Source: a bacterium
GTDB lineage: Bacteria > Thermosulfidibacterota > Thermosulfidibacteria > Thermosulfidibacterales > JALWSI01
NCBI GenBank assembly: GCA_027080315.1
Contig: JALWSI010000051.1
Span: 1-27,865 of the forward strand
Length of the DNA: 27,865 bases
Reading direction: 5' to 3'
In this document: positions 16,568 to 26,975 of the stretch, piece after piece
How the letters are laid out: every line of letters begins with the position of its first letter
Numbering within the stretch: position 1 is the stretch's first letter
Translations under genes and position numbers: made by a program
Notes under the pieces: model-generated
What the model was told of the DNA's origin: nothing
The model's database searches: none
The model's input: only the letters and a program-made list of their open reading frames with translations

Positions 16568-17749
16568 TTAACTATAGCTTTTAGGCATTCCTAAGATGTG
16601 CTCTGCAATGTAGTTCAGAGCCATCTGCTGGGTCACTGGTGCAAGCCTTACCAGGTTGATCTCTCTCCACCAACGCTCCACGTGGTACTCTTTTGAATAA
16701 CCGTATCCTCCCAGTGTCTGCATAGCCCAATAGACGGCCTTTGTAGCGTTCTCAACAGCAACAGCCTTGGCCATGTTAGCCACTGCTCCGATCTCTCTGT
16801 AATGGCCATCATTGTCAAAAAGCCAGCCAGCCTTGTAGGCCAAAAGCTCTGCGCTCACTAAGCTTGCATAGGCCTCTGCCAGAGGATGCTGCAGGGACTG
16901 ATAGCTGCTTATTGGCTGGGAGAAGACTTGCCTTTGATTACCGTAGTTCACCGCATAGTTTATTGCCAGCTTGCCAATTCCCACTGACGCCACAGTGAAC
17001 ACCAGCCTTTCAGGATCAAGCACATCAAGAAGAGAGAACCAGCCCTTGTCCACCTCTCCTAAAACAGCGCTCTCGGGAACCCACAGATCCTCAATAACCA
17101 CCTCACAGGTCTTAGAGTAGTTAATTCCGTGCTTGGGTATGGGGCTCACCTTAACTGCCTCGTTGGGAAGATCCACCAGAAATAGGGTGATCCCATGGGT
17201 CTTCTTGGGAGCATCCTCAGGTCTCGTGGTGCGGGCAATAAGCAACATGCCTTTGGCCCTGTCTGCACCGCTTATGAAGATTTTGCTGCCGTTTATCCTA
17301 TAGCCATCGCCTTCCTTCTTGGCAAAGGTCTCTATTCGGAAAGTGTTTGTCCCTGCATTGGGCTCGGTCAAGGCCATGCAGAACTCCAGCTCTCCAGAGG
17401 CTATCTTAGGCAGATACTTCTCTTTCTGCTCCTTGGTTCCATACTTAACTATGGGCATGGCACCAAACACCTCAGTTAGGCAGATGTACCAGTTTCCAGC
17501 CATGCCACAACCGTTCTCACACAGCTCCTGGATAACCAACATGAGCTCGGAAACTCCAAGCCCCACGCCTCCATACTCTTCAGGAATCACGATACCCAGA
17601 AAGCCAGCCTCGCTTATGGCTTTCCAGAACTCTGCTCCAAACTCGCCAGCCTCCTCCTTCTCGTACCAGTAATCAGGGGGAAAGTCCTTGGCGATCTTCC
17701 GCGCCGTCTCGGCCATGAGCCGTTGCTCTTCGGTGAAAGAAAACTCCAT
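16568..17749 (-). CDS. Acyl-CoA dehydrogenase family protein lacking the canonical catalytic Glu
   Basis: 393 residues with the three-part acyl-CoA dehydrogenase fold. FAD/substrate segments are present: PEEYGGVG (56-63), MALTEPNAGTN (125-135), LGGYGYSKEYHVERWWRE (346-363). Where most members have IYEGTxEI, with Glu as the base that takes the alpha proton, this protein reads LAPVTQQM (369-376), so Glu is replaced by Pro371. Glu247 in LDPERL sits where isovaleryl-CoA and long-chain enzymes carry their catalytic Glu on helix G, and probably serves instead. Substrate preference is unknown. GGGGAGGTG precedes the ATG. It appears to be a single-gene unit; no electron-transfer flavoprotein or other beta-oxidation gene is adjacent. 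Confidence 0.92.
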   Translation of the reverse strand: MEFSFTEEQRLMAETARKIAKDFPPDYWYEKEEAGEFGAEFWKAISEAGFLGIVIPEEYGGVGLGVSELMLVIQELCENGCGMAGNWYICLTEVFGAMPIVKYGTKEQKEKYLPKIASGELEFCMALTEPNAGTNTFRIETFAKKEGDGYRINGSKIFISGADRAKGMLLIARTTRPEDAPKKTHGITLFLVDLPNEAVKVSPIPKHGINYSKTCEVVIEDLWVPESAVLGEVDKGWFSLLDVLDPERLVFTVASVGIGKLAINYAVNYGNQRQVFSQPISSYQSLQHPLAEAYASLVSAELLAYKAGWLFDNDGHYREIGAVANMAKAVAVENATKAVYWAMQTLGGYGYSKEYHVERWWREINLVRLAPVTQQMALNYIAEHILGMPKSYS

Positions 17750-22359: not shown

Positions 22360-22718
22360 TGGTGGAGGCGGCGGGAATCGAACCCGCGTCCGAGACTGAC
22401 CACAAAGGGGCATCTCCACGCTCAGCCCCTGTTCTTAATCTCGCCTCTGGTCTGCCCAGGGGCAGGCAGAATTCCAGAGACCAGCCCCATCAAAGGTCTC
22501 GTCTTCGCCCGTCGGGGCAGGAGGCAAAGACCAGCCTGCGAAACCCGTCGTCCGTCTCCCCCTTCGCAGGCAGAGAGAGAGGGGACGTGGCCGTCAATTA
22601 AGCAGCCATTGCGTATGCAGGTTCGGCATTTGTGAAGATCCGTCTTTTTTACGAGGTGACGGACCTCGGCGTGCTTCCCCTTTCTGGTAAGCAGCCCCGT
22701 CGAAACCGGTACGCCCCC
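22360..22718 (-). ncRNA. ssrA: Transfer-messenger RNA (tmRNA, SsrA)
   Basis: About 359 bases. The 5' end reads GGGGGCGUACCGGUUUCGAC and pairs through 7 bases, including one G-U, with CGCCUCC before an encoded 3' ACCA at 22363-22360. The T-arm CGGGTTCGATTCCCG lies at 22386-22372. A pseudoknot-like stem (GTCCGTC with GACGGAT) precedes the open frame. The tag reading frame ends AYAMAA and then UAA (stop at 22600-22598). If the resume codon is GCC at 22627, the tag is AEPAYAMAA; ACA or AAU just upstream are alternatives. It rescues stalled ribosomes with SmpB and marks their products for proteolysis. The one-piece arrangement is standard. Confidence 0.97.
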
Positions 22719-22796: not shown

Positions 22797-23534
22797 TCAG
22801 GCGTCTTCAGACGCCACAAGGGCAGCCCCCAAGGCGGCTGTGAAGAGAGGATTCTCTGGCACCGTCATCTCGTGGCCAAGTTGCTGAGCCACAAGCTCAA
22901 CAAGGGTCTCAAACATGGCACCTCCTCCGGTGAAGATGAAAGGAGGGCCACCATCCATCCTCTTCACCATAGAGACGAGCCTCTGGGCAATTGAGAGGAA
23001 AACACCACGGGCAATACTCTCAACGGAAACACCCCGGGCCATGAGGGATACAAGCTCAGACTCAGCAAACACCGCACACATAGAGTTGAGTCTCGCCCCA
23101 TCCTCTGCGCCACGGGCCATCATATCCAGTTCTTTCAAAGAGAGGTCAAGCCTTTTAGCAGCCATCTCCAAGAACCTCCCCGTGCCAGCAGCGCATCGGT
23201 CGTTCATCTCAAAGTCGCTCACCCTGCCCTCTTTAACCTTAATCACCTTGAAGTCCTGACCTCCCAGATCAAGAACAGTGCCATCCCTCAGCCCCACCCC
23301 CAAGGCCTGAGCCTTAATCTCGGTTATGGCCTTCTGGGCTATTTGGGCTTTAACCAACCAATGGCGTCCGTAGCCTGTGGCAACGATCCGTTCTGGAGGG
23401 TTGAATTGGACAATCTCCCTCACAGCATCCTCCATAGAGGGCTTTGTGGGCAACATACGCCTGTTAACAACCCCTCCATCTTCTACCCATACCAGTTTGT
23501 AGTGGGTAGAACCAGCGTCTATTCCGAGAAACAT
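22797..23534 (-). CDS. 2-Hydroxyacyl-CoA dehydratase/double-cubane protein activator ATPase (HgdC/BadF family)
   Basis: 245 residues, full length for the homodimeric activator of the ASKHA ATPase fold. Phosphate loop GIDAGST (4-10), TEIKAQALG (71-79), DLGGQD (89-94) and TGGGA (202-206) form the nucleotide site. C114 in NDRCAAGTGRF and C153 in NSMCAVF are the two ligands per chain for the [4Fe-4S] cluster bridging the dimer. The protein couples ATP hydrolysis to injecting one low-potential electron into a partner iron-sulfur enzyme. Here the partner is the protein encoded 2 bases upstream. The ATG follows the partner stop as TGAGGATG, so the two are translationally coupled. It corresponds to the HgdC, YjiL or DCCP-reductase type; the partner suggests the last two. 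Confidence 0.94.
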   Translation of the reverse strand: MFLGIDAGSTHYKLVWVEDGGVVNRRMLPTKPSMEDAVREIVQFNPPERIVATGYGRHWLVKAQIAQKAITEIKAQALGVGLRDGTVLDLGGQDFKVIKVKEGRVSDFEMNDRCAAGTGRFLEMAAKRLDLSLKELDMMARGAEDGARLNSMCAVFAESELVSLMARGVSVESIARGVFLSIAQRLVSMVKRMDGGPPFIFTGGGAMFETLVELVAQQLGHEMTVPENPLFTAALGAALVASEDA

Positions 23535-23536
23535 CC

Positions 23537-24790
23537 TCAGGAGATCTCCTCCAAAAAGGCCTCTACTCTCGTGCGAAGCTGCTCTGCATCCTCAGGGGAG
23601 TAGTCTGTTGAGATCACCAAAGTTGGGATACCCCTCTCCTCAAGGGCCCGTTTCACCTTTCTGACCTCACCCTCGTAGATCTGGCAGAAGGATAGGGAGT
23701 GGTAAACCACACCGTTTGCACCTGACTGCAACGCCTCTTCAACGACCCTCTCCACCCTCTCGTGGTTGGGGGTGAAACAGGCACAGGTGATCTTGAAGTA
23801 GCGACGGGCAATAGCCTCAAGCAAAGCATCTTCGCTCTCTCCTTCCCCGTCAACGAGATCCCGGTAGTATCTGCTTCCTATGCAGCTCTCTTCGTGCACT
23901 ACCACGGCTCCGGCACCTTCAATAATGGCGTGAACCTTCCAATGGGGTATGGGCATGGGAGAACCTGCAACCATGATTCGGGGAGATGGTGGGTTAAGAC
24001 CCGACGCCTCTTCAAGCTCGTCTGACAGCCGGTTAACCTGCTTGGTGAACCTCTCAGGATCGTCAAAGAAGGAGAGCTGCTCAACAAGCAAACCATCAAG
24101 GCCTGAGAGAACCACGGGGTTCTTCCACCTCAAGCGGGCAAGCCTCTGCATAGCCATTCTCTTCTCGTTCACCACCTTTATGGCATCTTTCAGCTCACTC
24201 ACCCCAAAGGGTTGGCCCACCTCTCTCATGTGCTGGGCAAATCTCTTCACCTCATGGAGCCACAAAGAGAAGTCTTCTTTCGTCTTCCTCTGAGGCACCT
24301 CAAGAACGTGAAAGGGCATAAACTCACTTAGGGTCTCCCAGGCCTTCTTCTTGCCATCGCAGGTGGTCTCACCCCAGCCTTCAGTTAGCACCTGAAAGTA
24401 TGGACAGGTGGCAGAGAGCTTAAACCCAACTGCAGACTTTATTAGGGGACAAAGGGCCCTTGGAAGAACCTCTTCGGCCTTTGGTATGGGCATCTGGGCT
24501 CCTCCACACACCCCTACACAGACGCCACCTGCTGCAAGAACAAGCTCTTCGGGAACAAATATGCAGAAGATACCCACCACAGGCCAGCCTCCATCCTTAG
24601 CTTTAACCAGCTCTGACACCCTGCCACCGTGGATATCCCCCACCACAGAGTCAAAGTATCCCATGGCCTCAGGCCGCCCCTCTCTGCCCAAAAAGAGCTC
24701 CTGGTAAACAGGTCCCAACGAGTCCAGAAGCTGCTGGTGTGCCTCAAGGTCTATTCCAAGTCCACTCCACATCGCGTTCCAGTCGCCCAT
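23537..24790 (-). CDS. 2-Hydroxyacyl-CoA dehydratase D-subunit-like, double-cubane cluster type protein (YjiM/DCCP-like)
   Basis: 417 residues of the 2-hydroxyacyl-CoA dehydratase D-component family (HgdB/FldC). Landmarks: GIFCIFVPEELVLAAGG (73-89), ALCPLIKSAVG (112-122), TTCDGKKKAWE (142-152), EESCIGSRYYRDL (300-312), CACFTPN (336-342) and HSLSFCQIYEGE (364-375). Cysteines are at 76, 91, 95, 114, 129, 144, 303, 336, 338 and 369. True hydroxyacyl-CoA dehydratases use two different subunits. Here there is only one, followed by its activator, which is the arrangement of E. coli YjiM/YjiL and of the double-cubane [Fe8S9] protein with its reductase. That points to ATP-driven reduction of a small, hard-to-reduce substrate, which is unknown. 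AAGGAG precedes the ATG; the promoter region is shared with divergent uvrB. Confidence 0.88.
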   Translation of the reverse strand: MGDWNAMWSGLGIDLEAHQQLLDSLGPVYQELFLGREGRPEAMGYFDSVVGDIHGGRVSELVKAKDGGWPVVGIFCIFVPEELVLAAGGVCVGVCGGAQMPIPKAEEVLPRALCPLIKSAVGFKLSATCPYFQVLTEGWGETTCDGKKKAWETLSEFMPFHVLEVPQRKTKEDFSLWLHEVKRFAQHMREVGQPFGVSELKDAIKVVNEKRMAMQRLARLRWKNPVVLSGLDGLLVEQLSFFDDPERFTKQVNRLSDELEEASGLNPPSPRIMVAGSPMPIPHWKVHAIIEGAGAVVVHEESCIGSRYYRDLVDGEGESEDALLEAIARRYFKITCACFTPNHERVERVVEEALQSGANGVVYHSLSFCQIYEGEVRKVKRALEERGIPTLVISTDYSPEDAEQLRTRVEAFLEEIS

Positions 24791-24823
24791 TTTCTCTCTC
24801 CTTGACTTTCTTTTTGAAACAAG

Positions 24824-24852
24824 GTTAGACCCTTAAGGGGGATTAACTCCAA
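24824..24852 (-). promoter_or_regulatory. Possible promoter of the double-cubane-type pair with a palindrome in its spacer
   Basis: Minus strand: TTGGAG (24852-24847), 17 bases, then TCTAAC (24829-24824). The start near 24817 leaves about 27 bases, including the ribosome site. The spacer contains the perfect palindrome CCCTTAAGGG (24830-24839), a plausible operator. Both hexamers are weak. Confidence 0.35.
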
Positions 24853-24893
24853 TAAGAGTTTTCTATTCCAAGGGCAGGTTCTTATTGGGAACC
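24849..24893. promoter_or_regulatory. Inverted repeats in the uvrB/double-cubane divergent intergenic region
   Basis: CCAATAAGA (24849-24857) is repeated inverted as TCTTATTGG (24880-24888), with centres about 31 bases apart, or three helical turns. Overlapping the right copy is GGTTC-N7-GAACC (24877-24893), a 17-base palindrome that could be a LexA-type SOS box for uvrB. Its sequence does not match any LexA box I can quote exactly. Confidence 0.4.
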
Positions 24894-24905
24894 ACGGAAT
24901 ACCCT

Positions 24906-24933
24906 TTGCCTACAGGCCAAAGTGGGCTATTAA
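24906..24933 (+). promoter_or_regulatory. Possible uvrB promoter giving a nearly leaderless message
   Basis: TTGCCT (24906-24911), 16 bases, TATTAA (24928-24933). The predicted start falls within a few bases of the ATG at 24942, which fits the lack of a ribosome binding site there. Confidence 0.3.
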
Positions 24934-24941
24934 CCCTCACC

Positions 24942-26975
24942 ATGAGCGACATGTTCAAGGTGGAGTCTCCTTTTGAGCCCACAGGTGACCAGCCTCAAGC
25001 CATTGAGAAGATCGTTGAGAACCTGAGGGCAGGTGTGCCCTACCAGACCCTGCTTGGGGTGACCGGTAGCGGCAAGACCTTCACCATGGCCAAGGTGATT
25101 GAGGCGGTGAACAGACCAACATTGGTGATCTCTCACAACAAGACCCTTGCCGCCCAGCTCTACAACGAGTTCAAAAGGTTCTTCCCCAACAATGCAGCAG
25201 AGTACTTTGTCAGCTACTACGACTACTACCAGCCTGAGGCCTACATTCCCCACAAAGACCTCTACATTGAGAAGGACTGCTCAATAAACGAAGAGATTGA
25301 CCGCATGAAACACGCAGCAACCCGGTCTCTCTTTGAACGCAGGGACGTTGTGGTGGTGGCCAGTGTATCCTGCATCTACGGGCTCGGATCCCCCGATGCC
25401 TATTACGGCATGACCATTGGACTGAAACGGGGCATGGAGATTGACCGCCAGGAGCTGCTGGGTCGTCTAAGCGAGATCCAGTACACCCGCAACGATTACG
25501 ACTTCCACAGGGGGACATTCAGGGTGAGAGGAGACGTGGTAGAGATCTATGCCTCTCACATGGAAGACGCCGCGGTAAGGGTGGAGTTCTGGGGAGATGA
25601 GATAGAGGATCTCCTCATAATAGACCCCCTTACAGGGAGTGTTGAGGAGGAGCTTGAAGAGGTTAAGATCTACCCTGCTACTCACTATGTCACCCCCCAG
25701 GTGAGGTTGAAAAGGGCCATAGCCTCCATCAAAGCGGAGCTTGAAGAGAGGGTGAAAGAGCTGAAGAGAGCGGGAAAAGAGGCAGAGGCAGAAAGGCTGT
25801 GGAGACGCACCAACTTTGACCTTGAGATGCTCCAGAACATCGGTTACTGCAAGGGCATAGAGAACTACTCCCGACACCTGAGCGGAAGGGCTCCCGGAGA
25901 GCCCCCTCCAACTTTGGTGGAGTACCTTCCCGAAGACGCCCTCATCATCATTGATGAGAGCCATGTAACCATCCCCCAGTTGAGAGGGATGTACAGAGGC
26001 GATCGCTCAAGAAAAGAGAACCTGGTAGAGTACGGGTTCAGGCTCCCCTCCGCCTTGGACAACCGCCCCCTCACCTTTGAGGAGTTTGAGTCCTTCAACT
26101 ACCAGGTGCTCTTCGTCTCTGCCACCCCAGGAAGATACGAGCTTGAGAAGAGCGGACCTTACGTGGTGGAGCAGTTGATACGGCCCACGGGTCTCATGGA
26201 TCCCGAGGTGGAGGTGGTGCCTGCAAGGTTTCAGGTTGACCACCTGTTGGGAGAGATCAGAAAGAGGATTGAGATGGGAGACCGGGTGCTGGTCACCACC
26301 CTCACCAAGCGCATGGCAGAGGACCTATGCGACTACTACATGGATCTTGGAATCAAGGTCTGCTACCTCCACTCAGAGGTGAACACCATTGAACGCACGG
26401 CCATTATTCGGGATCTAAGGCAGGGCAAATACGACGTGCTCATAGGGGTGAACCTCTTGAGAGAGGGGCTGGACATACCAGAGGTCTCTCTGGTGGCTAT
26501 TCTGGACGCGGATCAGGAGGGCTTTCTGCGCTCCCATACCTCCCTCATCCAGACCATTGGCCGAGCCGCAAGAAACATCAGGGGCAAGGCAATTCTCTAC
26601 GCCGACAGAATCACAGACTCCATCAAAGCTGCGGTGGAAGAGACCAACAGGCGCAGAAGGATACAGAAGGAGTACAACGAGACCCACGGCATCACCCCCC
26701 AGAGCATTGAGAAAATGATTGACGAAGGGCTAACGGCCCCCTACGAAGCAGACTACTACACCGTGCCCTTGGCGGCAGAGGAAGCGGCTTCATACACAGA
26801 TGTGAAGAGGATTGAGGAGAGAATAGAGAAACTTAAAAGGATGATGCAGAAGGCTGCCCAGGAGATGGCCTATGAACAGGCAGCGGTTTACAGGGACGAG
26901 ATGAGAGCCTTGGAGAAGAGGCTTGTGGAGATACTTGAAGAGGCCTACGCCACGGCGGAAGGCTCAGAGGAGTAA
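24942..26975 (+). CDS. uvrB: Excinuclease ABC subunit B
   Basis: 677 residues from the ATG at 24942, a normal UvrB length. It has the helicase-like core with Walker A GVTGSGKT (39-46), the beta-hairpin region [12 protein letters not shown] that separates damaged strands, [29 protein letters not shown] and the motif VI stretch QTIGRAARN. The C-terminal UVR domain ([17 protein letters not shown]) contacts UvrC. It verifies damage after UvrA loading in nucleotide excision repair. The frame extends back to a TTG at 24885, but UvrB proteins begin at about [15 protein letters not shown]. ATG 24942 or 24951 is therefore the start, although neither has a Shine-Dalgarno sequence. Confidence 0.97.

What the first reader, a model, noticed from the sequence alone, without database searches (positions are those of the whole stretch)
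22797..24790. Stand-alone double-cubane-type reductase and its ATP-driven activator, substrate unknown
The sequence shows a single D-type subunit with ten cysteines, including the TTCDGKKK, SCIGSRYY and SFCQIY motifs, translationally coupled to an HgdC-type activator with both cluster cysteines. There is no second dehydratase subunit, CoA transferase or acyl-CoA gene beside it. From family knowledge, this layout matches YjiM/YjiL and the Carboxydothermus double-cubane [Fe8S9] protein, which reduces small molecules with ATP energy, rather than hydroxyacyl-CoA dehydratases. The physiological substrate of that group is unresolved. The divergent neighbour is uvrB, and palindromes fill the shared intergenic region.
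Basis: partly seen in the sequence, partly recalled or inferred. Interest (0 to 1): 0.65.

Follow-up and report, generated by a model that had tools for sequence, protein, structure and literature searches.

The report
Double-cubane reductase tied to selenium use
The window carries a real copy of a known two-gene, ATP-driven iron-sulfur reductase whose natural job is unproven, and comparing genomes shows that this enzyme occurs almost only in microbes that use selenium, which gives a concrete, testable idea of what it does.

Summary
Window 23537-24790(-) encodes a 417-aa double-cubane cluster protein (DCCP), followed two bases later by its ATPase activator (22797-23534, -). The D protein passes the curated DCCP model (421.6 bits, cut-off 350). 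Its best solved relatives are the Carboxydothermus DCCP structures; two-subunit dehydratases and benzoyl-CoA reductases score far lower. It lies inside the DCCP clade of a tree, and the genome shows no other D-type subunit or activator. The new element is function. All 22 DCCP genomes among 290 sampled also carry selD, against 43% of the rest. So do 48 of 49 genomes behind close relatives, and all 53 DCCP genomes among 146 Clostridiaceae. Most relatives' loci hold DUF3343, YedF, SelD, YedE or Sec-lyase-like genes; E. coli yjiM-yjiL is followed by the DUF3343 gene ytiA. The host is itself a selenium user. Most likely role: ATP-driven reduction of a selenium (or sulfur) species feeding SelD. One preprint already calls the link provisional. 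The gene is a new member of a known kind.

The parts
23537..24790 (-). DCCP gene: 417-aa double-cubane cluster protein (HGD-D fold); likely cluster ligands C76, C114, C144, C303, C336, C369; DCCP-specific conserved C95 and C129
   Evidence: NF040772 421.6 bits, cut-off 350; PDB 7yyl/6eno 473 bits; cysteine alignment; tree
22797..23534 (-). DCCP reductase (activator) gene: 245-aa ASKHA-type ATPase with two cluster cysteines C114 and C153, two bases after the DCCP stop codon
   Evidence: TIGR00241 218.9 bits; best solved relative is chain E of the DCCP complex 7yyl; junction read
24791..24941 (.). Intergenic region shared with uvrB, taking the ATG at 24942 as uvrB start; 10-nt palindrome at 24830-24839 and 9-nt inverted repeat 24849-24857/24880-24888; regulatory role not supported

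Best explanation
The two genes encode a double-cubane cluster protein and its ATP-driven reductase. SHOWN by sequence: family membership, conservation of the cluster cysteines, the two-gene unit, and no other D-type subunit or activator found in the genome. INFERRED from the solved homologues: the ATPase hydrolyses ATP to push electrons through its [4Fe-4S] cluster onto the [8Fe-9S] double cubane of a DCCP homodimer. INFERRED from genome statistics: the physiological job lies in selenium metabolism, most likely reduction or reductive release of a selenium (possibly also sulfur) species to selenide, which DUF3343/YedF-type carriers then hand to SelD. SPECULATIVE: the substrate binds at the bridging-chalcogenide site between the two cubanes.
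For: Membership. Single D subunit and activator in the genome. Selenium: SelD in 22 of 22 DCCP genomes against 116 of 268 others and against 12 of 22 genomes with HGD-D proteins but no DCCP; 48 of 49 genomes of close relatives; 53 of 53 within Clostridiaceae against 39 of 93. In 14 named control genomes DCCP, SelD and DUF3343 pass their cut-offs in the same two, E. coli and M. jannaschii. 48 of 77 relatives' loci carry selenium-associated genes within six ORFs. E. coli yjiM-yjiL-ytiA, where ytiA matches Se_S_carrier. DCCP beside YqeB, YqeC and YedF in a clostridial genome without SelA over the cut-off. The host itself has SelA, tRNA-Sec, Sec-SelD, YedF, a Sec-lyase-like protein and DUF3343.
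Against: No selenium gene lies beside the window's own copy; its selenium cluster is on another contig. One DCCP genome lacks SelD. Many SelD genomes lack DCCP, so it is not essential for selenium use. Association does not name a substrate. The statistics ignore shared ancestry. The activities reported for the Carboxydothermus protein are on acetylene, azide and hydrazine (as cited in PMC11971306); no selenium assay was found.
Confidence: 0.6

Rival explanations
1. It is a general small-molecule reductase or detoxification enzyme (azide, hydrazine, alkynes, or a nitrogen or sulfur compound), and its selenium association is a by-product of anaerobic life.
For: Activities on acetylene, hydrazine and azide are cited for the Carboxydothermus DCCP, with physiological relevance unclear (PMC11971306). 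DCCP genes are down-regulated under CO in Calderihabitans (PMC7306483).
Against: Genomes with HGD-D proteins but no DCCP carry SelD much less often (12 of 22 against 22 of 22), and within the single family Clostridiaceae DCCP is still confined to SelD genomes (53 of 53 against 39 of 93). Operon partners are specifically selenium-associated genes.
Confidence: 0.25
2. It acts on sulfur rather than selenium, or on both, for example C-S or C-Se bond cleavage of methylated compounds, as proposed for gene clusters that contain DCCP.
For: DUF3343, YedF and class V lyases are sulfur/selenium-handling families. PMC10418091 places DCCP in clusters for methyl-selenide and methyl-sulfur metabolism. TudS, a one-domain relative, is a desulfidase (PMC11971306).
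Against: A sulfur role alone does not explain confinement to SelD genomes.
Confidence: 0.3
3. [quoted passage not shown]
For: Same Pfam family (HGD-D); weak matches to HadC and BzdN models. An acyl-CoA dehydrogenase gene lies about 6 kb away at 16568-17749.
Against: Those models score 113 bits or less against cut-offs of 421-700. No second HGD-D in the genome. Placement inside the DCCP clade. C95 and C129, conserved in DCCPs but mostly absent from sisters, are present.
Confidence: 0.03

Closest known systems
Carboxydothermus hydrogenoformans DCCP and DCCP reductase (PDB 6eno, 7yyl, 7yzm, 7yzq)
   Same: Full-length match of both proteins, long form of about 420 aa, all ten cysteines of the window protein conserved
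   Different: Falls in a different branch of the DCCP tree; nearest are order-mates and Campylobacterota. Cluster content and activity here are untested.
E. coli YjiM/YjiL (with YtiA)
   Same: DCCP model passed (531 bits) and activator beside it
   Different: Short form (383 aa) in another branch; followed by the DUF3343 gene ytiA, whereas the window copy has no DUF3343 neighbour
BzdN (benzoyl-CoA reductase) and HadC (2-hydroxyisocaproyl-CoA dehydratase)
   Same: Same fold family; BzdN also holds an [8Fe-9S] cluster with six cysteine ligands (PMC11971306)
   Different: They work as heterodimers on CoA-thioester substrates; scores are far below family cut-offs and there is no partner subunit here

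Membership tests
Double-cubane cluster protein (DCCP, NCBIfam NF040772) | Score above the curated cut-off | tested here: met
   421.6 against 350 bits
Double-cubane cluster protein (DCCP, NCBIfam NF040772) | Six cysteines able to hold the [8Fe-9S] cluster | tested here: met
   C76, C114, C144, C303, C336, C369 align with BzdN and are conserved in 100 DCCPs (one gap at C369). The choice of C336 over C338 rests on invariance, as phmmer aligned C338 instead
Double-cubane cluster protein (DCCP, NCBIfam NF040772) | Placement in the DCCP clade | tested here: met
   Inside the DCCP side of the tree; that branch has support 89, its own 12-row set 96
Double-cubane cluster protein (DCCP, NCBIfam NF040772) | Cognate ATP-driven activator and no second D subunit | tested here: met
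   Activator two bases downstream; single HGD-D and single BadF/BadG match in a 94% complete genome
Double-cubane cluster protein (DCCP, NCBIfam NF040772) | An [8Fe-9S] cluster and ATP-dependent reduction | not testable with these tools
   Needs anaerobic expression and spectroscopy
2-hydroxyacyl-CoA dehydratase / class I benzoyl-CoA reductase | Partner subunit encoded in the genome | tested here: not met
   Only one HGD-D match
2-hydroxyacyl-CoA dehydratase / class I benzoyl-CoA reductase | Score above the curated cut-off of HadC, BzdN or BcrC models | tested here: not met
   113.2, 89.6 and 46.2 bits against 700, 453.8 and 421.15
Selenium-metabolism gene (functional group) | Host uses selenium | tested here: met
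   Sec-containing SelD, SelA, tRNA-Sec, YedF, DUF3343
Selenium-metabolism gene (functional group) | Physically clustered with selenium genes in this genome | tested here: not met
   Selenium cluster is on contig C61; the DCCP operon is on C51 beside uvrB and tmRNA

The most novel reading that the evidence does not exclude
The [8Fe-9S] double-cubane reductase family is a dedicated selenium enzyme: ATP-driven electrons reduce or release a selenium species to selenide for SelD, in selenocysteine users and in users of the selenium molybdenum cofactor alike. It would be the first physiological role for DCCPs.
Probability: 0.5. Interest if true: 0.8.

Novelty: new member of a known kind. Interest (0 to 1): 0.52.

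Why it matters
DCCP carries one of the most complex biological iron-sulfur clusters outside nitrogenase, and its biological function is described as unknown in a 2025 paper (PMC11971306). The nearly one-sided nesting of DCCP within SelD-bearing genomes, including genomes without selenocysteine synthesis, points to a step near selenide supply. E. coli K-12, with yjiM-yjiL-ytiA, offers an easy laboratory test. A preprint (PMC10418091) already calls DCCP provisionally linked to selenium metabolism, so the idea is not new, but I found no count of this kind in the papers I could read.

Tried and rejected
Two-subunit dehydratase or benzoyl-CoA reductase: rejected. Palindromes as a regulatory signature: weak, near chance. 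uvrB neighbour as a functional clue: not seen beside DCCP in five order-mates (read by eye from ORF starts; in those genomes uvrB lies on other contigs). Rfam search of the window: only tmRNA. The primary DCCP papers (PNAS 2018 and 2022) and Haft and Gwadz 2023 are not held, so cluster ligands were inferred from BzdN and conservation. No structure prediction was run, because a close relative is solved. The tree is a quick one without bootstrap. The neighbourhood counts use a simple ORF caller and 77 loci chosen as the closest relatives, with no random-gene control.

Full report
WHAT IS THERE. On the minus strand, 23537-24790 encodes a 417-aa HGD-D protein and 22797-23534 a 245-aa BadF/BadG-type ATPase. 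The two genes are two bases apart, with GGAGGAG upstream of the second start. The D protein passes the NCBIfam equivalog for double-cubane-cluster-containing anaerobic reductase (421.6 against 350 bits), while HadC, BzdN and BcrC models stay far below their cut-offs. By sequence its best solved relatives are the Carboxydothermus DCCP entries 7yyl and 6eno (about 473 bits against 92 for the next family member). The best solved relative of the activator is the activator chain of the same complex. In the host genome (1.84 Mb, 94% complete) these are the only HGD-D and the only BadF/BadG-type genes found.

CYSTEINES. In an alignment of the window protein with 100 DCCPs and 18 sister proteins, the six positions shared with BzdN are C76, C114, C144, C303, C336 and C369; BzdN holds an [8Fe-9S] cluster with six cysteine ligands (PMC11971306). 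They are cysteine in all 100 DCCPs, except one alignment gap at C369. C95 (100 of 100) and C129 (98 of 100) are conserved in DCCPs but mostly absent from sisters: C95 is Cys in 3 of 18 and C129 in none of the residues shown.

TREE. In a maximum-likelihood tree of 117 proteins the DCCPs, E. coli YjiM among them, fall on one side of a branch (support 89), with all 16 sister proteins on the other. Only HadC, BzdN and MbdN in that outgroup are named two-subunit proteins; the rest are HGD-D proteins below the DCCP cut-off. The window protein sits inside, in a 12-row set (support 96) with three order-mates, Campylobacterota and a Desulfobulbaceae protein. Long outgroup branches make the rooting unsure, but not the placement inside DCCPs.

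NEIGHBOURHOODS. Of 77 close relatives' loci, 48 carry at least one of five selenium-associated gene types within six ORFs: DUF3343/Se_S_carrier 33, YedF 19, EF2568-type Sec-lyase-like 12, SelD 7, YedE 5. Families were named from one representative each. They include the closest relative (L002, 54% identity), Actinomycetota, Caldifarciminota and Campylobacterota as well as Clostridia. There is no random-gene control; single-copy genes would be expected near a given gene in only a few per cent of loci (my estimate). E. coli yjiM-yjiL is followed by ytiA, which matches Se_S_carrier.

CO-OCCURRENCE. I searched the same 290 genomes for DCCP and for SelD. All 22 DCCP genomes, from 17 families, have SelD over the cut-off; 116 of the other 268 do (Fisher 3e-8). 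Among genomes with HGD-D proteins but no DCCP only 12 of 22 have SelD (Fisher 3e-4; list taken, so not exhaustive). Genomes reached from relatives' loci: 48 of 49 (the exception is Paradesulfitobacterium ferrireducens). Within 146 Clostridiaceae: 53 of 53 DCCP genomes have SelD, against 39 of 93 others (Fisher 6e-15). These tests ignore shared ancestry. In the 14 named control genomes DCCP, SelD and DUF3343 each pass their cut-off in E. coli and M. jannaschii only.

NOT ONLY SELENOCYSTEINE. Seven DCCP-bearing clostridial genomes with a Sec-less SelD have no SelA over the cut-off. I fetched seven loci and scanned selected genes of three: L132 has YqeC, YqeB, YedF, DCCP, activator and a MocA-like protein in one run; L135 has a molybdenum hydroxylase, YqeB and an XdhC-like protein near DCCP; L136 has an EF2568-type lyase. 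Of the other four, L131, L133 and L134 look similar from ORF starts, which I read by eye only; L137 shows no such cluster. The link is therefore to SelD and selenide rather than to selenocysteine alone.

THE HOST. The host genome has a DUF3343 - EF2568-type lyase - YedF - Sec-SelD cluster on contig 61, SelA on contig 208 and tRNA-Sec on contig 237. It is a selenium user, but its DCCP operon is unlinked to that cluster.

MECHANISM. Known from homologues (papers and PDB titles): ATP-driven electron transfer from the activator to the double cubane. Inferred here: a role in selenium metabolism (about 0.6). More speculative: reduction or release of a selenium species at the bridging-chalcogenide site. 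The related desulfidase TudS, a one-domain relative, has a [4Fe-5S] cluster (PMC11971306), which makes chalcogen chemistry plausible in this fold.

PRIOR WORK. Lin et al. 2015 list a 2-hydroxyglutaryl-CoA dehydratase subunit and an activase among STRING partners of selenium genes in Slackia (PMC5322559); in that paper I searched only for those words. PMC10418091 calls the dicubane protein provisionally linked to selenium metabolism. PMC11971306 states that the function of DCCPs is unknown. The gene itself is thus a new member of a known family; the counts here strengthen an existing hint.

Noticed in passing
L125:5669-5926 (E. coli K-12 ytiA, b4715): Annotated only as an uncharacterized protein, ytiA follows yjiM-yjiL and matches Pfam Se_S_carrier/DUF3343 (48.9 bits, cut-off 25), so E. 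coli carries the DCCP - activator - DUF3343 set.
   Followed up: partly
window 22360-22718 (-): tmRNA gene directly downstream of the activator gene, tag peptide AEPAYAMAA, Rfam 189 bits.
   Followed up: no
L049 and other Clostridium genomes: Clostridium has short (~385 aa) and long (~425 aa) DCCP types, sometimes in tandem (for example G324:C1:4116507-4118994), which could form heterodimers.
   Followed up: no
L035 (Paradesulfitobacterium ferrireducens): The one of 49 DCCP genomes with no SelD match; SelA is also absent.
   Followed up: partly
window 24885-24942: uvrB as listed starts at TTG 24885, but an in-frame ATG at 24942 fits the start of the UvrB model match better.
   Followed up: no
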